Of a DNA stretch of 64,000 nt, positions 41,597-63,314 are shown in pieces. Origin of the DNA: Allorhodopirellula heiligendammensis (GTDB lineage Bacteria > Planctomycetota > Planctomycetia > Pirellulales > Pirellulaceae); contig NZ_SJPU01000001.1 in assembly GCF_007860105.1 (NCBI RefSeq), forward strand, positions 880,090-944,089, written 5' to 3'. Position numbers and translations under genes: made by a program. The notes under the pieces were generated by a model, which made no database searches, was not told the origin of the DNA, and worked only from the letters and a program-made list of their open reading frames with translations. The first letter of the stretch is position 1. Every line of letters begins with the position of its first letter.

Positions 41597-42796
41597 CTAC
41601 GATTCCGTTCGCCTCAACAGGCCGTTGGCGACGGCATCCAATGGGCGCGCTTTGCCGATCCGGCGACCGCCTTGGTAGACGATCACGGCACCGTCGCGAT
41701 GACGTTCGTAACGCAAGTCAATCTTGCGACCGCGGAGGTCGATGGGCGTTTCGTAGCGTTGGCCTCGGAAGCTGAACGTGTTGTCTTTTTTGACCTGACG
41801 TTCCGCTTCGGCATAGAACAACTCGTCAGTGTCTTCACTGGGTGTGAGAAAACGAATTCGTGAAAGATCGACGCCGAAGCGGTCGATCGGTTTCATGCCC
41901 AGGGTTGAGTGAACGGTCGAGTTGTAGTCGCCTTCGACCCAGGCACTGAACTGTTTGTTAAGGCTTTCGATCGAAGAGAGATCCAGGTTGCGGATCAAGA
42001 ACTGGTCACGGACTCGGCGGAAGAAGCGTTCAATTTTCCCTTTCGCCGCCGCGTCTCGCACCGCCGTGTGACGCAGGATGCAGCCTACACGCGCCGCTAT
42101 CAGCGTGATTTCCTGGCAACAGTAGATCGAGCCGTTATCAACGTAGAGCTGTTCGGGAAGACCGCGTTTGTAAAACGCACAGCGGATTGCCTTGACCATC
42201 GAGTCGACGTTCTCTTCAAAGAAGAACTCGCCGTGGCACAGCACACGGCTGGCGTCATCAATGAACGCAATCAGCTTGGCTTGTCGGCCGACGATGTGCG
42301 GCCCGAACATCGTGTCGGCCTGCCAAAGCTGGTTAGCGTACTGCATGCTGAAGGCCCGACGCTGACGGCTCTCGCCGGAGTCCTCTTTGAGGAACTCGTA
42401 CTTGCCCACCATCCGGCTGAACGTGTTTCGTGCGATTTGGTTTGCGTTGAGCAAGCCTTTCTCGATACAGAAACGATAGATAGCGGTTTTGCCCGGTGTT
42501 TTCCCATGAAAATGAGGCAGCGCCGCATTGATCGCTTCGAGAACTTCTTCGGGGGTGACTTTCCGCGTGCGTCCCTTGTCGGACCGTGATTGGTTTTGCA
42601 TCGCGGTGATACCGTGATTCTTGTAGCGGTAGTGCCACGTTTGGATGGTTCGCCAGGTGAACTGGTATGGCTTTCCTTCTTCGTCGGTGAATGTCATTTC
42701 GGCGACATTCTTGATGCGTGCGTCACTCGTTTTCCCTTCGGCGATGTCGATCGCTCCGAGGACTTTCATTTTGAGATAGATCGATGGACGTTTCAT
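41597..42796 (-). CDS. DDE transposase (rve/Mu-like) of the transposon
   Basis: A 399-residue transposase starting MKRPSIYLKMKV (ATG at 42796; the frame is open to 43015 but that part is low-quality). An N-terminal helix-turn-helix region precedes the RNase H-fold core: D161 (QADTMFGP), D220 (LYVDNGSIY) and E256 (GKIERFF), i.e. a DD(35)E triad. A C-terminal beta domain (YETPIDLRGRKIDLRYE) follows, as in Mu-type integrases. It catalyses strand transfer of the element ends. Confidence 0.92.
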   Translation of the reverse strand: MKRPSIYLKMKVLGAIDIAEGKTSDARIKNVAEMTFTDEEGKPYQFTWRTIQTWHYRYKNHGITAMQNQSRSDKGRTRKVTPEEVLEAINAALPHFHGKTPGKTAIYRFCIEKGLLNANQIARNTFSRMVGKYEFLKEDSGESRQRRAFSMQYANQLWQADTMFGPHIVGRQAKLIAFIDDASRVLCHGEFFFEENVDSMVKAIRCAFYKRGLPEQLYVDNGSIYCCQEITLIAARVGCILRHTAVRDAAAKGKIERFFRRVRDQFLIRNLDLSSIESLNKQFSAWVEGDYNSTVHSTLGMKPIDRFGVDLSRIRFLTPSEDTDELFYAEAERQVKKDNTFSFRGQRYETPIDLRGRKIDLRYERHRDGAVIVYQGGRRIGKARPLDAVANGLLRRTES

Positions 42797-43080: not shown

Positions 43081-43650
43081 TCAGATGAAGAAACGCTGTG
43101 TCGCGTTCTGGAAGGCGGCGATCGGGTTGATGGAAGAATCCTGGAAGGCTGCTTTGAGGTGGGCGATGGTCCCTTGGGCAGCGGACTGGGCAGGCGACGG
43201 CACTCCGTCTTGATGGACATGCTTAGGCGGCGGCCCGATCGCCGTCAGAGCGGTTCGTATCGCCGCCTGGGCTTGCAGAAATCGTTTCCAGATCCGGTAG
43301 GGTGCCGAGTCGCTCAGTGAGCTTTGCAGGTCTCTGAAAGCCTGGGACTTACTTCCCGTCGTAGCGGCTTGTTCAAGAAATTGCCACAGGCTGTCGGCAT
43401 CGAGGAAGAGCCTTTTGACTTTGTCGGCGATCCAGACACTGAAGGTTCTGCCGCAGCCGCCAGCGTTTGCACGATCGGAGCAGAAGACGCGAATCGCCCG
43501 GATGGCTTTTTGCTTGAAGTTCAGCTCGTCGTAACCTTTGAGGAATCCATGTCGCTTCAGTGCCCCAGTGTGTTTGCAGTGAGGACAGGGCAGGCACTTT
43601 AGCAGGGCGAGTCGCCGGTCACGCTGCTCCTTGGAGGCGAAAATCCACAC
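43081..43650 (-). CDS. Zinc-ribbon DNA-binding protein of the transposon
   Basis: A 189-residue protein with a zinc-ribbon (CLPCPHCKHTGALKRHGF, then C..GGCGRTFSVW) followed by a helical region, like the N-terminal DNA-binding part of IS1-type transposases but without a catalytic domain. The GTG at 43650 is used. In the other frame an ATG at 43690 reads MPCHFDPEPRELQQYRVD up to the same place, and the derivative copy at 46017 preserves it, so the true N-terminus may involve a frameshift. Possible role in end or target recognition. Confidence 0.65.
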   Translation of the reverse strand: MWIFASKEQRDRRLALLKCLPCPHCKHTGALKRHGFLKGYDELNFKQKAIRAIRVFCSDRANAGGCGRTFSVWIADKVKRLFLDADSLWQFLEQAATTGSKSQAFRDLQSSLSDSAPYRIWKRFLQAQAAIRTALTAIGPPPKHVHQDGVPSPAQSAAQGTIAHLKAAFQDSSINPIAAFQNATQRFFI

Positions 43651-44149
43651 GATACTGCTGAAGTTCCCGAGGCTCTGGATCGAAATGGCAGGGCATCAGC
43701 GCCAGCCTACCGGGTTTCAGTTTGGAGCACTGCGCGCATCCAAAGGGGCGGGGTCGAGGCGAGGTACGATTGATTTTTGAGAACGGCGGGTTGCGAGTTG
43801 CGGGTTACGAGGGCGGGCGAGACTGTACCGAATTAGCGGTGTAACCATCACTGCCACTTGCGACAACAATTCGGCCCAAAACCGGCGGAAAGTGCGACCA
43901 AAGCGAGGCCGGTAACAGTTCGTCCACACCTGGCAGGCAAAACCAACGCCGAAGTCGGTGAACTCGCTGGAATGAATCCCGTGGTAGTCAGCCAGATGTT
44001 CACACGAACGAAACCGGCATCCCTGGGAGCCGTCGCCGCGAATACCGGAGCCTGGGGACATAGCTCCTTTTCAGGTGTTGACTTGCCGCTCTTCAGGGTA
44101 ATGATGATTTGGTTGAGTTTTCCGAGTTCGAAGCCGATCGAGGTGAGTG

Positions 44150-45233: not shown

Positions 45234-45433
45234 ACGGGACGATCGCATCTTCTTCGCTCCAGCGGATCACCTTCCCGGGTCGATAACGCTTGAGGTGCAC
45301 ACTTTCGGGCTGCCAAGACGGCAAAGTAGCTCGTTTCGGTACCTGAGCGGCTGGAGAGATCTCAGGGATTGCCGTCTACTCCCCAACGGGCCGCTTGCCA
45401 GGGGTCAACAAAGTGTCGTGTCCCCAGGTTTTC

Positions 45434-46239
45434 CCGCTGGGTGTGAGAAAACGAATTCGTGAAAGATCGACGCCGAAGCGGTCGATCGGTTTCATGCCCA
45501 GGGTTGAGTGAACGGTCGAGTTGTAGTCGCCTTCGACCCATGCACTGAACTGTTTGTTAAGGCTTTCGATCGAAGAGAGATCCAGGTTGCGGATCAAGAA
45601 CTGGTCACGGACTCGGCGGAAGAAGCGTTCAATTTTCCCTTTCGCTGCCGCGTCGCGCACCGCCGTGTGACGCAGGATGCAGCCTACACGCGCCGCTATC
45701 AGCGTGATTTCCTGGCAACAGTAGATCGAGCCGTTATCAACGTAGAGCTGTTCGGGAAGACCGCGTTTGTAAAACGCACAGCGGATTGCCTTGACCATCG
45801 AGTCGACGTTCTCTTCAAAGAAGAACTCGCCGTGGCACAGCACACGGCTGGCGTCATCAATGAACGCAATCAGCTTGGCTTGTCGGCCGACGATGTGCGG
45901 CCCGAACATCGTGTCGGCCTGCCAAAGCTGGTTAGCGTACTGCATGCTGAAGGCCCGACGCTGATCCACACGATACTGCTGGAGTTCCCGAGGCTCTAGA
46001 TCGATATGGCAGGGCATCAGCGCCAGCCTACCGGGTTTCAGTTTGGAGCACTGCGCGCATCCAAAGGGGCGGGGTCGAGGCGAGGTACGATTGATTTTTG
46101 AGAAAGGCGGGTTGCGAGTTGCGGGTTACGAGGGCGGGCGAGACTGTACCGAATTAGCGGTGTAACAATCGCTGCCACTTGCGACAACAATTCGGCCCAA
46201 AACCGGCGGGAAGTGCGACCAAAGCGAGGCCGGTAACAG
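45434..46239. mobile_element. Internal-deletion derivative of the four-gene transposon
   Basis: 45434-45964 matches the transposase gene around 41839-42366, and 45965-46239 matches 43643-43918, so about 1.28 kb is missing at the junction. The right end GGCCGGTAACAG is kept; the left end is absent. Scattered base differences show it is not a recent copy. The remaining frame (45376-46017, minus) encodes a transposase core with all three acidic residues but no C-terminus. Confidence 0.82.
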
Positions 46240-50031: not shown

Positions 50032-50216
50032 CCCATCTCCTGTTCGCCGATTCTCCGCCGTGGCTCGTAGACAATGACCGAAGTTTTCGACACTGGGTGC
50101 ATGACCCGGAGAATTGAAACCTGCGGCAAGCTTTGCAGGCGGTGTCACTTGACATTCATCAGGCCGAGACATAGTTTTCTGCGATTATCTTAAATATTAC
50201 CTCGAAAGAAATGAAC

Positions 50217-50564
50217 ATGGCAAAGAAAAAGACAGCGACGAAGAAGACGACTGCGGCGCCAGCGAAGGCGATGACCAAGGCTGAGATCGTCACGGCTTTG
50301 GCGGAGGGCACGGGGCTGACCAAGAAAGAGATCGTGAGTGTGTTCGATGAGCTTTCGACGTTAATGGGGAAGAACCTTGGAAAACGAGGCCCAGGTGTTT
50401 TCAATCTCCCTAGCCTGTTGAAAGTGAAAGTGATCCGCAAACCAGCGACAAAAGCCCGCAAGGGAATTAACCCGTTCACCAAAGAGGAAACGGTTTTCCA
50501 GGCCAAGCCTGCTCGAAATGTGGTCAAAGTGCTGCCCCTCAAGGCTCTGAAAGACATGGTTTGA
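50217..50564 (+). CDS. HU-family DNA-binding protein
   Basis: A 115-residue nucleoid protein. A Lys/Ala/Thr-rich tail of about 20 residues (MAKKKTATKKTTAAPAKA) precedes the HU fold: helices MTKAEIVTALAEGTGLTKKEIVSVFDEL, strands with GPGVFNLPSLLKVKV, and the arm NPFTKEETVFQAKPA with an NPFT motif equivalent to the NPxT of HU. The extended tail is typical of planctomycete HU-like proteins. The ATG at 50217 gives the normal MAKKK start; 50211 is an upstream alternative. Binds and bends DNA. Confidence 0.92.
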   Translation: MAKKKTATKKTTAAPAKAMTKAEIVTALAEGTGLTKKEIVSVFDELSTLMGKNLGKRGPGVFNLPSLLKVKVIRKPATKARKGINPFTKEETVFQAKPARNVVKVLPLKALKDMV

Positions 50565-50592: not shown

Positions 50593-50682
50593 TCAGTCTG
50601 AGGGACGCAGTAGACTTGCAAAGTGCTGACGCTCGTAGGCGGCCATCCGGTCGGCGAGTTCGCTTCGTCGTTTTCGATCCAT
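50593..50682 (-). CDS. Tiny basic ORF after the kinase fragment
   Basis: A 29-residue frame, MDRKRRSELADRMAAYERQH and so on, 27 bases after the kinase stop. It may be a separate micro-protein or the frameshifted end of the kinase gene. Low certainty. Confidence 0.3.
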   Translation of the reverse strand: MDRKRRSELADRMAAYERQHFASLLRPSD

Positions 50683-50709
50683 TACCAGGGCAGGATCCTG
50701 GTCCCGAGT

Positions 50710-51252
50710 TCATCTTGATGGACCAAGCATCGTCAGGATGTCTGCGACGGTAGCGGTTCGGTCTGCTGGCGATTTGCGGAGCGTGGCAGCGAGAATGTTG
50801 CGAAGTGCGTCGGAAATTGCTTCACTTGGCAGGACTTCCGAATCGTAGCTCGAGAGCGTTGACGCTAGCGATTCTTCGAGACTTGTGCCGTGATTTGGTG
50901 GCCTTCGGAAGATGAGCCAGTGAAGGAGACCGCCGATCGCATAGATGTCGGTCTTAGGGCCGATTGAACCGAACGCTGGGTCGATTTGCTCTGGAGCCGC
51001 GAAGCCCGGTGTTCCACCCAGTAGTCGAGGCTTGTCGATTGCGGACGCTGTTGTTTCGATGGTTGCTTGTGAAAAACCAAAGTCGGTGATCGTGATTCGA
51101 TTGTCCGCATCGACAAGGACGTTGCCCGGTGTAAGGTCGCCGTGGACCAGGCCGGCGCGATGCACGGCTTGGACAGCATCGCAGATCTGTCGGAACCAAT
51201 GGATGATCTGCTTCGGCGTGACGTCGGTATCTATCATCCGCTTTTGATCCAA
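50710..51252 (-). CDS. Ser/Thr kinase C-lobe fragment
   Basis: A 180-residue frame covering only the kinase C-lobe: FRQICDAVQAVHRAGLVHGDLTPGN (HGD in place of HRD, Thr in place of the catalytic-loop Lys), DFGFS, GGTPGFAAPEQ, then IYAIGGLLHWLIF and a complete end. The N-lobe with glycine loop and ATP lysine is missing. It begins head-to-head with the helicase gene, overlapping its open frame by about 50-110 bases. As it stands it cannot be an active kinase unless N-lobe sequence is supplied elsewhere. Confidence 0.75.
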   Translation of the reverse strand: MDQKRMIDTDVTPKQIIHWFRQICDAVQAVHRAGLVHGDLTPGNVLVDADNRITITDFGFSQATIETTASAIDKPRLLGGTPGFAAPEQIDPAFGSIGPKTDIYAIGGLLHWLIFRRPPNHGTSLEESLASTLSSYDSEVLPSEAISDALRNILAATLRKSPADRTATVADILTMLGPSR

Positions 51253-54200
51253 CGAGTCCAGTTGCTATTCGATCCCAAGATTCCCGAATTCACGATCCTC
51301 GACGCAGATCATGAATTGGAACTGTACTCATCTCTCTTTCAAACGATCTCGGAAGTTGATCCTCGCAAGCTTGGGAAGTGTCGTGAGGAATTGGCCGATT
51401 CCGTGCTCCACCCGCTTGATGAAGAGGCTTCGGCATATCTGAAGCGGCTCGCGATGACATTGTCGTCGAAGGGCGAACTAGTCGAGAAACGTCGGCCCGC
51501 GGTGATACACGAGCAACCTGTGATCGGAAGGTCACCTGTCTTGTTTCTGCGATCGCGTAGCATAGGACTGACCAGTGCGATCGAACAGACCATCACCCGC
51601 CTTTCGCAAAGAGATCACTTTTGCGAAGCACTCAACCGGATTGTCGGCGACAAGTCTATGGCGAGGATCGATGAGGATCTCAGCGAAGCAGAACACGAAG
51701 ATAGATCGGCACGAGTCCGCAGCGAGCAGACAGTACTTTTTGGAAAAAAATCAAACGCCGAGCAGCTGAAGATCGCGCAAAGGTTAAATCAACATGGTGC
51801 GGTGCTAGTTCAAGGTCCACCGGGCACCGGCAAGAGTCACACGATCGCGAACTTGATCGGGCATTTGCTCGCTCATGGGAAAAGCGTTCTCGTGACCAGT
51901 CACACAACGAAGGCGTTGCGAGTTCTCCGGGACCATGTGGTGCCCGACCTGCAACCATTATGCGTCAGCGTACTGGACAACGACAACACCAGCCGGCGAC
52001 AACTGGAGGAGTCCGTCGCTGTGATTAGCTCACGTCTGTCCGAATCTGACGTGCGCACGCTACAGCGGGAATCAGAAGAGTTTGCGCAGCAACGAGAGCG
52101 ATTTCTTGCGGCTCGACAACGATTAGTCGACACTCTCTTCCTCGCCAGAACAAACGAGTATCGAGAAATTGTGTTCGCTGGAGATTCGATTTCACCATCA
52201 AACGCCGCCCGTGAAGTTCATTGGGGCGTTGGTGAGCATGACTGGATACCGGGACCCGTTGCAGCGGGGGTGCCAATGCCGTTGTCAGTTCAAGAAGTCA
52301 GCGAACTGTACGCGACGAACTCCACGACGGCGATTCACGACGAACAGTTTGTCGAAGAGCCGTTCCCCGAACTAGCGAGTATTCTGACGCCGCAAGCGTT
52401 TTCAACGTGCGTCGTTTCAATGAGAAACGCGGAGCAACAACAATTGCATCTCGCTGGTCGTCGGTATTGGGGATCAACCCGTTTCACAACCAATCACATT
52501 CAGCAGTCAGCTCAGCTTGCTGACCAGTTTGAAACGTGTGTTGCGGATTTCATGGCTTTGGAGCTTTGGCAAATCGCTGCTTTGGAAGCGGGGCGTGAAG
52601 GTGGCTCCGAACGACAAGCTTGGCGATTGCTGCAGTCAAAGATCGCCGAGACCGTGCAGTTTGCCGCCGAATCCAAGCTCGACATGCTTCAGCACGATCC
52701 TACGATCGACGACGAGACTCCGGTCGGTACTCAGTTGGCGATCGCTCAGCAGCTTGTGCAGCACACGAGCGTGAGCGGCAAGATTGGGTTTTGGGCTGGT
52801 TTGACTAACAGAAGTTGGAACGACATGATCGCGAAGTGGAAAGTGAGATCGGGCCAACCGACCGAATCCATCCACTTTCTTGCGATCAGCAAACGATTGC
52901 GATTGCAGGACTCTCGCGAGTCGCTGGCAGTATTGTGGGACGGTTTGATGCACCGGAATGGCTCGCTCGCGTTTGCCGAACTCGGCGACCGTCCCGAAGA
53001 GTATTGTGAGCAGTTCGAGACAGGAATCGAAACGGCTCTTGCTCGCTGGCAGTCTTCATGGGGAGTAAGTCTGGAGGGACTCTCGGGATTAGGCTTCGAC
53101 TGGGACGCATTCCTGGCGAATGCTCCCCCCACTGCCGGATCGTTCGGAACGCTCAAACGAATTGTCGGCACCGTCCAGGGTCAACTCGTTCCCTTTCTAC
53201 GATCGACCAACGCGGCGCTGACGTCGACATATCAACACAATCGCCTAAAAACGCTCTCGTCTGAACTGCAAAAGTTTGGTCGACCGGAGATTGGCACGCT
53301 CCGAGCAGCGATCGCGAGTAAAGACATCGCTGCCTACGAGATAGCTTATCAAGCTATCCAGGTTGCCAGAACACGCCAACACAATGCGATCGTAAGGCGT
53401 CGACTGCTCGGGAAGCTCGATCAAGTTTCCGGTGATGGGGTTTCCGTTGCGGGTGCATGGGCCGCGGCCATTTGCGATCGCGATGGGGTTCATGGAAAGT
53501 CAACTCCACCTGGCGATCCAGGCAAAGCGTGGCGTTGGCGTCAACTCGATGACGAAATCCAGCGTCGCAACGACACAGACATCGAACAGTTACAACAGCA
53601 GATCGAGACCACCTCGGCGCAAATTGATCGCGCCACCGTCGAACTCATCGAACGCCGAGCTTGGGCGACCCAGGTCAAACAGGCGGGCGCCTATCAACAA
53701 GATCTTGTCGGTTGGCTGGATATCGTTCGCAGAATCGGAAAAGGGTACGGAAAACGAGTCGCACGATTGCAAACCGAGGCCAGGCTAAAGATGCGCAATT
53801 GTCGGGCCGCAGTTCCTGTTTGGATCATGCCCATCTCGCGACTAGTCGACAACTTTGACTTCGCCAAAACGAAGTTCGATGTCGTCATTATCGACGAGGC
53901 GAGCCAATGTGATGTGATGGGCTTGCTCGCCATTGCCCTTGCGAAACAAGTTGTCGTCGTTGGTGACCACGAACAGGTGAGTCCATCGGATGTCGGGCAA
54001 AACGCAGGCCAAGTCGACAACCTCATTAAATTGCACCTCGACGGCATTCCCAACAGTGTGCTGTATGATGGGAAGATGTCGATCTACGATCTTGCCCGGC
54101 AATCGTTTGGCGGCTTGATCTGCTTGTTGGAACACTTTCGCTGCACAACCGACATTATCCAGTTCAGCAATTACCTGTCCTACAACGGTGAAATCAAACC

Positions 54201-55578
54201 TCTTCGTGACGACGCGAAGTTTCAACAGCAGGTCGTCGAATACCGTGTGGAGTCGGTATCGCTTCGCAAGCATGTCAACTCAGCGGAGGCGGACGCAATT
54301 GTGTCGCTGATCGTCGCGGCGACCGAGTTTGCTGAATATGACGGAATGACGTTTGGTGTGATCGAGCTTGTTGGCAAACAACAAGCATTGGAAATTGAAC
54401 AGCAACTTCGCCGGAGACTCAGTCCGGAGGTTTACGAGGCCCGCCGCGTCATCTGCGGAAACTCGGCTCAGTTTCAAGGTGATGAGCGAGATGTCATGTT
54501 CCTCTCAATGATCGACGTACCCAATGGTGGACCACTCACCATGAAAGCTGCCGCTACCTTCCAACAACGCTACAACGTGGCAGCCAGCCGTGCCAAGAAT
54601 CAGATGTGGGTGGTGCATTCGCTCAACCCGCAAACCGATTTGAAAGCGGGCGATCTGCGAAAGCGACTGATTGACCATGCTCGAGACCCAAAGGCCGTCA
54701 CGCGAGAACTGGAAAAAGCCGAAGCGAGATCAGAGTCACCTTTTGAAGAAGCCGTCATCAAGCGGTTGGTCGCCGCTCGATTCAAGGTCACGCCACAATG
54801 GAAAGTAGGACGCTACCGCATCGACATGGTTGTACAAGATGGGAGTCGCAAGCTGGCCGTCGAGTGTGACGGTGATCGCTATCACGGTCCCGAAAAGATG
54901 GCGGATGACATGAATCGCCAAGCCATTTTAGAACGGCTCGGCTGGAAGTTTCATCGTATTCGTGGCACCGAGTTTTTTCGTGATCCCGACTCCGCCATGC
55001 AGCGTTTGTTCGCAAGATTTCTCGAGTTAGATATCCATCCCGTTGCTGATGACCAAGCCGACACTGCGGAGACGTACGACGAAGAATTGACGCAAAGGCT
55101 CATTCGCCGTGCTGCTGAAATCCGCCGATCGTGGGATGACCCTGGTGCTGACGAATCACCTGCATTGTTAGCGTTTGATACCACGCAAGAACAAGCTGTT
55201 TTGACCGAAGACTCGGACGCGGATGACGAATTCCTCGTTGTGACTGAGCCCGTGGAGGTCGCCCCGCCAACAATATCCCCACCCAATTCGGTAACCCAAA
55301 GTAGACAGACTGTATTGACGTTCACTGATCTCGATGATGATGAATCGCTCGAAACTACAAGCGAGAATTCGGATGTCGGTTTAGTCTCGCTTGATCAATT
55401 TGACGGAACAGAGGCTGAGATTATCGCCCTTTTGTCCGCTCAACCAGGACTTGGTGCCAAGCAACTCGCCACAAAGCTGAACCTGACCAAGACGGAAGTC
55501 AATCGCGTCCTCTATGGACCGCTCAGCGACCACGTTGCCTGCGATGAACAATACCGTTGGAGTCTCTCGGTGGGCTAG
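51199..55578 (+). CDS. SF1 (Upf1/Dna2-like) helicase fused to a PD-(D/E)XK nuclease; probable defence protein
   Basis: A 1459-residue protein. The helicase core has Walker A GPPGTGKS at 206-213, DEAS at 899-902, then HEQVSPSD, LLEHFRC, NSAQFQGDERDVMFLS and YNVAASRAKNQMWVV, i.e. COG1112-type SF1 motifs. From about 1180 follows a MTES_1575/Vsr-like endonuclease: FEEAVIKRLV, YRIDMVV with D1209, and AVECDGDRYHG with E1222. A winged-helix-like end (about 1405-1459, AKQLATKLNLTKTEVNRVLYG) closes it. Homology appears to begin at GIYHPLLIQRVQLLFDP, close to the junction with the inverted kinase fragment, so the native N-terminus may be missing. A role in anti-phage defence is inferred from the family. 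Confidence 0.9.
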   Translation: MDDLLRRDVGIYHPLLIQRVQLLFDPKIPEFTILDADHELELYSSLFQTISEVDPRKLGKCREELADSVLHPLDEEASAYLKRLAMTLSSKGELVEKRRPAVIHEQPVIGRSPVLFLRSRSIGLTSAIEQTITRLSQRDHFCEALNRIVGDKSMARIDEDLSEAEHEDRSARVRSEQTVLFGKKSNAEQLKIAQRLNQHGAVLVQGPPGTGKSHTIANLIGHLLAHGKSVLVTSHTTKALRVLRDHVVPDLQPLCVSVLDNDNTSRRQLEESVAVISSRLSESDVRTLQRESEEFAQQRERFLAARQRLVDTLFLARTNEYREIVFAGDSISPSNAAREVHWGVGEHDWIPGPVAAGVPMPLSVQEVSELYATNSTTAIHDEQFVEEPFPELASILTPQAFSTCVVSMRNAEQQQLHLAGRRYWGSTRFTTNHIQQSAQLADQFETCVADFMALELWQIAALEAGREGGSERQAWRLLQSKIAETVQFAAESKLDMLQHDPTIDDETPVGTQLAIAQQLVQHTSVSGKIGFWAGLTNRSWNDMIAKWKVRSGQPTESIHFLAISKRLRLQDSRESLAVLWDGLMHRNGSLAFAELGDRPEEYCEQFETGIETALARWQSSWGVSLEGLSGLGFDWDAFLANAPPTAGSFGTLKRIVGTVQGQLVPFLRSTNAALTSTYQHNRLKTLSSELQKFGRPEIGTLRAAIASKDIAAYEIAYQAIQVARTRQHNAIVRRRLLGKLDQVSGDGVSVAGAWAAAICDRDGVHGKSTPPGDPGKAWRWRQLDDEIQRRNDTDIEQLQQQIETTSAQIDRATVELIERRAWATQVKQAGAYQQDLVGWLDIVRRIGKGYGKRVARLQTEARLKMRNCRAAVPVWIMPISRLVDNFDFAKTKFDVVIIDEASQCDVMGLLAIALAKQVVVVGDHEQVSPSDVGQNAGQVDNLIKLHLDGIPNSVLYDGKMSIYDLARQSFGGLICLLEHFRCTTDIIQFSNYLSYNGEIKPLRDDAKFQQQVVEYRVESVSLRKHVNSAEADAIVSLIVAATEFAEYDGMTFGVIELVGKQQALEIEQQLRRRLSPEVYEARRVICGNSAQFQGDERDVMFLSMIDVPNGGPLTMKAAATFQQRYNVAASRAKNQMWVVHSLNPQTDLKAGDLRKRLIDHARDPKAVTRELEKAEARSESPFEEAVIKRLVAARFKVTPQWKVGRYRIDMVVQDGSRKLAVECDGDRYHGPEKMADDMNRQAILERLGWKFHRIRGTEFFRDPDSAMQRLFARFLELDIHPVADDQADTAETYDEELTQRLIRRAAEIRRSWDDPGADESPALLAFDTTQEQAVLTEDSDADDEFLVVTEPVEVAPPTISPPNSVTQSRQTVLTFTDLDDDESLETTSENSDVGLVSLDQFDGTEAEIIALLSAQPGLGAKQLATKLNLTKTEVNRVLYGPLSDHVACDEQYRWSLSVG

Positions 55579-60484: not shown

Positions 60485-61760
60485 TCATGCACGCGTATGA
60501 AACCTGACAATTTCCATTGCAGACGTGACGTCCAGAAAGTCAACCGCGAGCGATTCGGCGAGTAATTCGTCTGACAGAAGTTCGTCAAGTTTGCGGAATT
60601 GTTTGGATGGCAAGAGATTCGCCAATGCAACTGGATCGATTTTTGAAGATGCAATCGAAGCAAGCTTCTTCTTGGATTCAGCTACCCCTGTTGAATCAAA
60701 TTCGATGGCAACGTCACGATCTGTGCACGGTAGCCCTGCGCGTTCCGCCAACAGGCAAAGTGTCCGTTGGATGCGGGTTCCGGTCCAGGTCAACCAAAGG
60801 CAGCGAGTCGGCGATAGCGAAACAAAACTCGTCTCGTGAAGTCGAGCTGCAATCGCTGTCGCCCGCGATTGAGCTAAAAGCTCGGAAGCAGCCTCATCAA
60901 GGTACTGCAGCTCTCGGTCGCTGCAGACGATCTCCTTCATCTTCTGGCGGATGCGCTGATGTATTTCGCCACCGCTTCCGAAGAATCTCGGCGGCTTCCT
61001 GCCCTTTGCTCGCTTTACAATGATCTCACGCCGCTGGTCGTCAATGATCACGACTTGCCAGCGACGGCCACCCAGAATGAAATGCTCGTCGACTTTCGGC
61101 AGCGAATCAGCCGGCAGCATTCCAATGGGGACGCTCCGATGCATCACGCTGTAGTCAATGCCGCTGGCAAACGCACTGTAAAACGAATAGTGCCTTACCA
61201 TTTGCTCGCCTTTTGGGGCGAGAATGAGGTCGCCTTGCGGCATTTGCTCTATGAGCTCCTTGGCAGCCAAGCATCGCAGGACTTTCGTGAACTGGCCAGT
61301 TGAAATGCTTCGGAACGCACCATCGGTGCAGAGAGTGGCATAAACGATTGATGCTTCTGCTCCGCCAGTCTGAGCAAGCACGCTGAGGATCTGATGTGTG
61401 AATGTGCTCAAATCAAATCTTGCAATCGATGGTGGCTCCACCCAAGTCGGTCGTTCCAACATCAACTCAGTCACAGCCGCCGCACGTAGCAAATCAAGAT
61501 GCAGCTTATCGATAAGCGTCGACTTCGCCGTGATCGGCGATTCAGTGATATAGAGACGCATACACTGCGGTTCACCCTCACCACGTCCACTCCGGCCAAG
61601 TCGCTGGACGAGTGAACTCACAGACCAAGGCGGATCCACCTGCCCAACTGCGGCAACATTCCCAATGTCAATTCCTAGCTCAAGAGTAGACGAACAAACA
61701 GTAGTCTTCGGACGCCGACCTTGCATTTCCCGTTCAGTAAATTCTCGACTCTCTTTGCTC
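60485..61760 (-). pseudogene. C-terminal part of an Lhr-like DEAD/DEAH helicase, truncated by IS66
   Basis: The reading frame runs from the IS end at 61760 without interruption: CSSTLELGIDIGNVAAVGQVDPPWSVSSLVQRLGRSGR (motifs IV-VI of SF2 helicases) followed by a long C-terminal region of about 300 residues typical of Lhr (Lhr-core winged helix and WH domains). The first RecA-like domain with Walker A/B and DEAH is missing. Upstream codons to the IS edge (KESREFTEREMQGRRP) are still coding. Cannot function as a helicase. Confidence 0.85.
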
Positions 61761-63314
61761 GTAACTGTTCACGGTTTAGCGCGTACGTCGAGCCAAACTG
61801 CTTGAGTTAGGTTCGATTCTAGCCGATTGGTAGCAGCGGCGGCGGTCGCTGGCCGCGAAAGAAATGCTCAAGCGATGTCCGCAGAACATCCAACAGTGAT
61901 TTGTTTTGATCCGAGCAGGTTGCCAATACCGTCCATATCCGTTCGAGCCATCGTTGCCCGCCTTCGCTCTTACTGCCCTGGGTCACCTTGCGGTCAATCA
62001 CCACAAAACGAATCGCTTGTTCGGCGATGTTGTTTGTCGGCTCCAGGCCGGGTGTCGTCAGGAACTTCAAGTAGCTCGCGCCATCATTGGCAAAACGCTT
62101 CGAAAGGTTGCGTGCTTTCTTGTCATCGGGAACGCGGAATCTTGCTCGCGTCAGGACCTCCATCGCCGCGTCTTCCAATTCGCCATCGAAACGTCTCCCC
62201 AATGCTTCGCGTCGATGAATCACACCGAACATTTCGCGAATCGCGTCGAGCAATCGACTCGACCAACCATGCGTCCGCCCAGTCGAGTGCTCTTGAAGGA
62301 AACGCAATTCACGAATTAGGTGGGCAAAGCAAAACTGGATGCTGCAATCAGTCAGTCCGCGATACTTGTGATACGCACTGAAGTAATCGCAGCCGATGAT
62401 TCCGTTAAACTCTTCACCGAGCACGTCGAGCAACACACCGCTGCCGCGCGAGGCATCGATTTTGAAAACGGTGAAGCCTGTGCCGCGAAAGCACCACGTC
62501 CACATGCGTTTGCCACTGTCGCGATGTCCTGTCTCGTCGATGTTGAGGATCCGCTGAGCCCTCAAGCTTCCCAAGAGGTCTTCGTAGATCGGTGCGATCG
62601 CTTGGCTGATCTTGTTGATAATCTTCGCCAACTGGCCGCGAGAGAGTTTCAGCTCGTAGACGTCGAGGAGGTATTTGCGGATCGTCGAAAGCGAGGCATG
62701 GCAAGTCCCTTTGAGAAAGCCAATGATGCTGGAAAGCTCGACGCCGCACAGTCCAGCTTTGCGAACCTCCGGTGGGATGGTGCAAACAACGGTCTTGTCA
62801 CAGGCGGCACAGTGGCTGGCAAGCGATTGATGCTCGGTTGTTTCGGTGCGGCTGACAATCTCAATCTGCTGGAGACGCGAGACAGGGTTGTCTGTGTCCG
62901 TCGTAACGGGGCCACCGCAACATGGGCATTGCTCGTACGAATACTGCGTCAGCCATTGCAGTTCGTCTTCGGGGACCGTTGGCCGCACCGTCCTCTGATG
63001 GCCCTTCTGGCCGCCCTTTTTACGTTTGCCGCTAGGCTTTCGCGGTCGGATCGGCTTCACAATGTCCGAGGAAGGAGGCTTGGAACTATTGGATGAATTC
63101 TTGGTCGCCGCGGCTAGCTTAGCGCTCACCTCGTCGAGCTTTGCCGTCGTTTCGCTGAGTTGTTTGACGATAGCGTCGAACTTCCGCTCCAACTCATTGA
63201 AGCGTTGCTCCCAGCGTTCACATTCCGGACATCCGTTCCCAGTGCTCATGGCGTAGAATTCTAACCGACATCGCCGAATCCGCGAATATCAGTTTTAAAA
63301 CCGTGAACAGTTAC
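61761..63314. mobile_element. IS66-type insertion sequence (single transposase gene)
   Basis: Terminal inverted repeat GTAACTGTTCACGGTTT / AAACCGTGAACAGTTAC (61761-61777, 63298-63314). No 8-bp target duplication is seen (left CTTTGCTC, right GCCGATTT), and the gene on the left has no continuation on the right, so the insertion was followed or accompanied by a deletion. Length 1554 bp. Confidence 0.85.
61819..63249 (-). CDS. IS66-family transposase (TnpC-like)
   Basis: A 476-residue protein with the IS66 hallmarks. Coiled-coil N-terminus with KNSSNSSKPPSSD and the Lys/Arg linker RPRKPSGKRKKGGQKGH, a zinc finger CPCCGG...CAACD, and the DDE domain LNIDETGHRDSGKRMWTWC, IIGCDYFSAYHKYRG, FCFAHLIRELRFLQ and NNIAEQAIR. 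There is no separate TnpA or TnpB, as in the ISBst12-type subgroup. Full length. Confidence 0.93.
   Translation of the reverse strand: MSTGNGCPECERWEQRFNELERKFDAIVKQLSETTAKLDEVSAKLAAATKNSSNSSKPPSSDIVKPIRPRKPSGKRKKGGQKGHQRTVRPTVPEDELQWLTQYSYEQCPCCGGPVTTDTDNPVSRLQQIEIVSRTETTEHQSLASHCAACDKTVVCTIPPEVRKAGLCGVELSSIIGFLKGTCHASLSTIRKYLLDVYELKLSRGQLAKIINKISQAIAPIYEDLLGSLRAQRILNIDETGHRDSGKRMWTWCFRGTGFTVFKIDASRGSGVLLDVLGEEFNGIIGCDYFSAYHKYRGLTDCSIQFCFAHLIRELRFLQEHSTGRTHGWSSRLLDAIREMFGVIHRREALGRRFDGELEDAAMEVLTRARFRVPDDKKARNLSKRFANDGASYLKFLTTPGLEPTNNIAEQAIRFVVIDRKVTQGSKSEGGQRWLERIWTVLATCSDQNKSLLDVLRTSLEHFFRGQRPPPLLPIG

What the first reader, a model, noticed from the sequence alone, without database searches (positions are those of the whole stretch)
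50593..55578. Helicase-nuclease defence gene with an inverted, truncated kinase at its head
The helicase gene (COG1112-type SF1 helicase, PD-(D/E)XK nuclease, winged helix) begins its family homology at GIYHPLLIQ, next to a kinase C-lobe fragment read on the opposite strand. Both lack their N-terminal parts at the shared junction, near 51200-51250. Defence systems of the Mokosh type combine a kinase with a COG1112 helicase (recalled), so this may be a kinase-helicase fusion rearranged by inversion, or an independent arrangement with a PD-(D/E)XK in place of the PLD nuclease.
Basis: partly seen in the sequence, partly recalled or inferred. Interest (0 to 1): 0.7.

Follow-up and report, generated by a model that had tools for sequence, protein, structure and literature searches.

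The report
Rearrangement scar truncating kinase and helicase
A DNA break-and-join in a planctomycete-type genome fused, head to head, the back end of a bacterial signalling kinase gene and the main body of a putative phage-defence helicase-nuclease gene; the two most likely never belonged together, so this is an ordinary scar rather than a new kinase-helicase defence system.

Summary
In detail: kinase homology (50646-51229, minus strand) and helicase homology (51229-55578, plus strand) meet at one base, 51229. A Mokosh-like kinase-helicase fusion is not supported. Of 23 relative loci examined, 18 could be tested, and all 18 helicases run about 182-243 residues further N-terminally. Pfam finds a kinase in 0 of 9 members scanned. 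The missing N-terminus has no match elsewhere in this genome.

The kinase piece is the last 166 residues of an ECF-sigma/kinase fusion gene whose intact paralogue lies at C1:8147-9598. An inverted, 98% identical partial copy of the HU/kinase-tail segment lies about 50 kb away beside an assembly gap.

Best reading: an illegitimate join in an unstable, IS-rich region removed the first ~200 codons of a PDC-S37-like helicase-nuclease and most of a duplicated sigma-kinase gene. The helicase body is open, keeps 99 of 102 conserved columns and shows no rate excess, so the break is recent or a shortened protein still works. Interest is low.

The parts
51142..55578 (+). N-terminally truncated helicase-nuclease gene (SF1 helicase + MTES_1575/Vsr-type REase); first 29 codons are antisense kinase DNA; alternative in-frame ATG at 51199
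51229..51229 (.). base-exact junction between kinase-derived and helicase-derived DNA; one shared base
51814..51837 (+). Walker A motif GPPGTGKS of the helicase
   Evidence: sequence; GPPGTGK invariant in alignment A1
54742..55017 (+). REase_MTES_1575 nuclease domain (PF18741)
   Evidence: residues 1201-1292
50710..51229 (-). kinase C-lobe remnant: last 166 residues of an ECF-sigma/Ser-Thr-kinase fusion gene; the ORF runs on to 51252 in antisense helicase DNA
50641..50715 (+). 25-residue C-terminal remnant of a 112-aa protein that follows the kinase in the intact copy; the rest is missing at 50641/50644
50211..50564 (+). HU-type DNA-binding protein gene; partial 98% copy in inverted orientation at G000:C1:879639-879989, cut there by the N gap

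Best explanation
It is a rearrangement scar. A segment carrying an HU gene and the 3' part of a sigma-factor/kinase fusion gene was duplicated and placed inverted about 50 kb from its near-identical partial copy. The join removed the helicase gene's own start and first ~200 codons. It also removed the kinase gene's sigma domain, N-lobe and the start of its C-lobe. The kinase piece cannot be an active kinase. The helicase-nuclease family (SF1 Upf1-type helicase plus Vsr-type nuclease; best PADLOC model PDC-S37, a defence candidate) probably moves along foreign nucleic acid and cuts it. This copy has lost its N-terminal region and is most likely inactive or weakened. Shown: junction, truncations, paralogue, copies, native N-terminus in relatives. 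Inferred: order of events, end joining, defence role, loss of function.
For: Junction at 51229 with one shared base. Native N-terminus of about 182-243 aa in all 18 testable loci of 23 examined, and 182 and 184 aa upstream of the match in two annotated plasmid relatives. No kinase in 9 of 9 members scanned. The lost N-terminus has no match at E <= 1 in the own genome. As controls, the same query found the helicase's own N-terminus in 5 of 6 other genomes: clearly in G120, G007 and G009 (E 1e-52, 3e-6, 9e-6), weakly in G019 and G045 (0.008, 0.2); in G060 it missed the helicase locus. Intact sigma-kinase paralogue in the same genome. Partial inverted 98% copy of the HU/kinase-tail segment at C1:879171-879989. 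A second deletion at 50641/50644 shows the segment broke more than once. Repeats, an IS66 transposase gene and an integrase-core gene lie within the window.
Against: The helicase body is not visibly decaying: no stop in 1478 codons, 99 of 102 post-junction columns kept, no rate excess (chi2 1.06, 0.15, 0.09). That would also fit a working shortened protein. No unbroken version of this locus was found in the 12 other genomes of the genus searched, and no reciprocal product. One plasmid relative's alignment starts at window residue 7 (H1), inside the stretch that is kinase DNA on the other strand; I take that as a chance extension. An assembly error cannot be excluded without reads.
Confidence: 0.9

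Rival explanations
1. The shortened helicase-nuclease still works (this shares the scar reading and differs only on function): it starts inside the antisense kinase DNA (GTG 51142 or ATG 51199) and the lost N-terminal region was dispensable, or its loss changed its trigger.
For: Open frame of 1478 codons, motifs intact, 99 of 102 conserved columns kept, relative rate equal to L005. HU lies upstream on the same strand.
Against: All 18 testable relatives of 23 loci examined keep the N-terminal region. The cut falls by eye inside a conserved stretch (VVGDGLLSW.../IYHPLLIQ). No promoter-like site lies between HU and the starts, and one terminator-like site does (50652-50670); both scans are at chance level and weak.
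Confidence: 0.2
2. A Mokosh-like kinase-helicase gene was broken by an inversion, so the kinase once headed the helicase.
For: Kinase and Upf1-type helicase sit side by side; MkoA models match both parts separately.
Against: Relatives have a non-kinase N-terminus. The kinase piece is 84% identical in protein to a sigma-kinase gene elsewhere in the genome. The best MkoA stretches of the helicase lie on helicase motifs. 58 kinase matches in this genome, itself included, make kinase neighbours common.
Confidence: 0.02
3. The junction is an assembly artefact joining two unrelated loci.
For: The assembly is scaffolded, with a run of 100 N just before the window start beside a 98% copy of the same segment.
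Against: Only one base is shared at 51229; assemblers usually mis-join at long shared words (general knowledge). The window holds no N. A separate deletion lies 0.6 kb away.
Confidence: 0.07

Closest known systems
PDC-S37 (PADLOC defence candidate; that 'S' means single-gene is recalled)
   Same: Best PADLOC model for the window protein (E 2.6e-60) and for 4 of 4 full-length relatives scanned.
   Different: The match is partial (best stretch model positions 918-1369 of 1550), and the window copy lacks its N-terminal ~200 aa.
Hhe and MTES_1575-type SF1 helicase-Vsr REase proteins
   Same: Upf1-type SF1 helicase (Hhe placed there in PMC10925250, passages) with MTES_1575 Vsr-type REase and a C-terminal wHTH by eye (layout in PMC3710099, passages).
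   Different: The best Hhe stretch covers only model positions 1348-1783 of 1911. No HEPN or transglutaminase family is among the Pfam matches of the 9 members.
Mokosh (MkoA/MkoB, MkoC)
   Same: SF1 Upf1-type helicase core; a kinase beside it.
   Different: No in-frame kinase in the 9 members scanned; nuclease is MTES_1575/Vsr type, not PLD; the kinase belongs to another gene.
ECF sigma factor fused to Ser/Thr kinase in one gene
   Same: The kinase remnant is 84% identical in protein to the C-terminus of such a gene in the same genome.
   Different: The remnant lacks the sigma domain and the kinase N-lobe.

Membership tests
Mokosh | Ser/Thr kinase joined to, or partnered with, the helicase (recalled; MkoA models contain kinase positions) | tested here: not met
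   0 of 9 members with Pkinase; kinase piece derives from a sigma-kinase gene
Mokosh | PLD nuclease, separate or fused (recalled) | tested here: not met
   Nuclease is PF18741 REase_MTES_1575; no PLD family among the Pfam matches of the 9 members; separate neighbouring PLD genes were not searched for systematically
Mokosh | MkoA/MkoC as best defence model | tested here: not met
   PDC-S37 (202.5 bits) ranks above Hhe 116.7, MkoC 94.7 and MkoA 79
PDC-S37 | Best match to the PDC-S37 profile | tested here: met
   no curated cut-off is given by the tool
PDC-S37 | Match over most of the profile | tested here: inconclusive
   Window: two stretches, best 918-1369 of 1550; relative L089 matches 292-1533
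PDC-S37 | Anti-phage activity | not testable with these tools
   No experiment; PDC is a candidate label
SF1 helicase-Vsr REase (MTES_1575 type) | SF1 helicase plus MTES_1575 REase | tested here: met
   9 of 9 members
SF1 helicase-Vsr REase (MTES_1575 type) | N-terminal region shared by this window's relatives, present in the window copy | tested here: not met
   30 aa instead of about 182-243 aa
Hhe | Full-length HheA match | tested here: not met
   Best stretch in the window protein covers model positions 1348-1783 of 1911 (a second stretch is counted but not shown); the intact relative L005 has one stretch, 1348-1785

The most novel reading that the evidence does not exclude
The helicase-nuclease is still made from a new start inside antisense kinase DNA. 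It works without its ancestral N-terminal region, for example as a nuclease whose normal sensing or restraining part has been removed.
Probability: 0.15. Interest if true: 0.35.

Novelty: new member of a known kind. Interest (0 to 1): 0.15.

Why it matters
It removes a false lead: a kinase next to an Upf1-type helicase here is not a Mokosh variant. It also shows that kinase-helicase neighbourhoods in kinase-rich genomes such as this one need a junction check before being called systems. The truncated copy and its intact relatives form a natural comparison for asking what the uncharacterised ~200-residue N-terminal region of this helicase-nuclease family does.

Tried and rejected
Kinase-helicase fusion: rejected. 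Native divergent kinase gene: rejected, because both genes are cut at the same base and the kinase has an intact paralogue elsewhere.

Inversion seen through a reciprocal junction: the lost helicase N-terminus was sought in the own genome and not found. In one search the control query hit 6 of 6 other genomes at E <= 1, but only five of those genomes have a hit at the helicase itself: three clear, two weak; G060's hits lie elsewhere and are chance level. The kinase 5' part is found complete only in two intact paralogues. So no reciprocal product was seen, and a simple inversion is not shown.

Inverted repeat at the breakpoint: one imperfect 20-nt pair (17 of 20; 51196-51215 and 51300-51319) encloses the junction. 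4 of 300 random window positions reach 17 or more. The right arm is poorly kept in L005 and the join is not at either arm, so I count it as a weak, unexplained sign.

dN/dS of the helicase could not be computed, because synonymous sites are saturated. The kinase remnant gives dN/dS 0.25 against its paralogue over 166 codons, close to 0.23 for the paralogue against G045's gene; this includes time before the break and does not date it.

Structure prediction of the lost N-terminal region (alignment A2) could not be run: the machine was busy at each of six tries.

Literature: six searches, of which I saw the listings. Passages were read in PMC11291487, PMC8103513, PMC3710099 and PMC10925250. The make-up of Mokosh (kinase, PLD) is recalled. 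In one search none of the four papers listed contains PDC-S37; papers holding that term alone would not have been listed.

Rows not used: one search examined 23 loci; five of them (L006, L095, L099, L103, L104) were not testable. The more distant loci L002-L004 and L013-L020 and L071-L078 were not tested for their N-terminus. Lengths assume the first in-frame ATG/GTG/TTG and ignore gaps, so they are approximate (L040: 182 there, 209 in the alignment). The kinase search of those 23 loci used one kinase sequence only; it found one kinase gene, separate and about 3 kb downstream of the helicase in L005.

Full report
What is there. The window's helicase ORF (51142-55578, +, 1478 aa) carries SF1 helicase domains (AAA_11, AAA_12) and a REase_MTES_1575 nuclease. 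Next to it on the other strand, ORF 50710-51252 matches only positions 94-253 of the 263-position Pkinase profile.

The junction. Comparison with an intact kinase gene of the same genome (matched at G000:C1:9097-9662, 85.6% over 584 bp) and with an intact helicase gene of a Pirellula MAG (L005, 68.7% over 579 bp) puts the end of one homology and the start of the other at the same base, 51229. A three-way view shows one shared base there. The helicase ORF continues upstream through 29 codons of antisense kinase to GTG 51142 (the open frame begins at 51073). The kinase ORF continues through about eight codons of antisense helicase.

The helicase's own head. In L005 the gene encodes 204 residues before the tyrosine that matches window residue 31; the window has 30. 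Of 23 loci with relatives, 18 have homology reaching that residue, and all 18 extend about 182-243 residues further (L094 and L100 are near copies); in the other five (L006, L095, L099, L103, L104) the match starts too far downstream to tell. More distant loci were not tested. Two annotated plasmid genes, in a Fusobacteria bacterium and in Variovorax, start 182 and 184 codons before the matched part. The extension is shared and is not a kinase: 0 of 9 members match Pkinase, and the 205-aa piece of L005 has no Pfam match up to E 0.5. That piece has no match at E <= 1 in the window's genome. As controls, the same query found the helicase's own N-terminus in 5 of 6 other genomes, clearly in three (G120, G007, G009) and weakly in two (G019, G045); in G060 it missed it. 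A remnant as close as L005's body is to the window (72% in protein) should have been seen, since G120's at 48% gave E 1e-52.

Where the kinase comes from. The remnant equals residues 318-483 of a 483-aa gene with a Sigma70_ECF domain followed by a kinase domain. Two intact genes of this kind exist in the genome, among 58 kinase matches in all, the remnant included. A 112-aa gene follows the intact kinase. In the window only its last 25 residues remain, between HU and the kinase remnant, with a deletion at 50641/50644. A partial copy of the same segment (part of HU, the whole 112-aa gene, and only the last 13 or so kinase codons) lies inverted at C1:879171-879989, 98% identical, against a 100-N gap just before the window. 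HU also lies in a broadly similar neighbourhood in a genome of the same genus, G166, downstream of the same large gene. So the 879-kb place is probably the older one, but the genes between differ and this is an inference.

How it arose and what it does. The likeliest course is duplication of the HU/kinase segment, then breaks and end joining with little or no homology, in a region with repeats, an IS66 transposase gene and an integrase-core gene. The kinase remnant lacks the ATP-binding N-lobe and cannot be an active kinase (family knowledge). The helicase-nuclease resembles the candidate defence protein PDC-S37 best. Its layout, SF1 helicase with a Vsr-type nuclease and C-terminal wHTH, is one described for MTES_1575 (PMC3710099, passages); Hhe and Mokosh helicases were placed in the Upf1 subfamily (PMC10925250, passages), and solved Upf1, Sen1 and Dna2 helicases are among the best matches by sequence in the Protein Data Bank. 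Relatives occur on plasmids (331 records of 72,556 at E <= 1e-20, all under 60% identity) and at 13 loci of the viral collection, out of 80 candidate stretches, in keeping with a mobile defence gene. Defence itself is not shown.

Dead or alive. After the junction the helicase keeps 99 of 102 columns that are invariant in eight relatives; the three changes are conservative. It shows no rate excess over L005 with three outgroup sets (chi2 1.06, 0.15, 0.09). The break is therefore recent, or the shortened protein still has a use. The lost region is present in all testable relatives, and the cut falls by eye within a conserved stretch, so loss or weakening of function is more likely.

Results against my reading. 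No unbroken version of this locus was found in the 12 other genomes of the genus. No reciprocal product was found. An imperfect inverted repeat encloses the junction at a strength reached by 4 of 300 random places and is unexplained. One plasmid relative (H1) aligns from window residue 7, and alignment A2 places part of the antisense stretch against the native N-terminus; the DNA there is kinase DNA, so I take both as chance. The assembly is scaffolded with a gap near the sister copy, so the join needs reads.

Verdict. Observation confirmed; rearrangement supported; kinase-helicase system not supported. The item is a truncated member of a known kind of candidate defence gene beside an unrelated gene remnant.

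Noticed in passing
window 60485-61726 (-): A second helicase remnant: it matches PADLOC SngC (Shango) only at model positions 315-717 of 720 (E 2.9e-114), and an IS66 transposase gene (61819-63249) lies where its N-terminal half should be. Three ORFs beyond the IS gave no SngC match.
   Followed up: partly
G000:C1:879171-879989 and N run 879990-880089 (L050 15172-16090): A 98% inverted partial copy of the HU/kinase-tail segment next to a 100-N scaffold gap; its kinase tail joins unrelated DNA just below 879171.
   Followed up: partly
window 41838-42365 / 45437-45964 and 43643-43918 / 45964-46239: Two pairs of 97-99% direct repeats at and beside an integrase-core (rve) gene (45376-46017), perhaps broken mobile-element copies.
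   Followed up: no
L036 4148-5599 and L037 2575-4008: Genes joining an ECF sigma factor and a Ser/Thr kinase in one polypeptide: two in this genome and one in G045 (L090 5634-7154). Domains were confirmed by Pfam for L036; the others by homology along the whole length.
   Followed up: partly
L092 1032-6134: In a viral-collection contig a 54% relative of the helicase is split into two ORFs, with IS66-like and integrase-like genes and a phage portal-like gene nearby (these by eye).
   Followed up: no
L005 3756-4688: An AAA_5 ATPase gene lies directly upstream of the intact helicase in the Pirellula MAG; it was not searched for beside the window copy beyond the ORF list.
   Followed up: no
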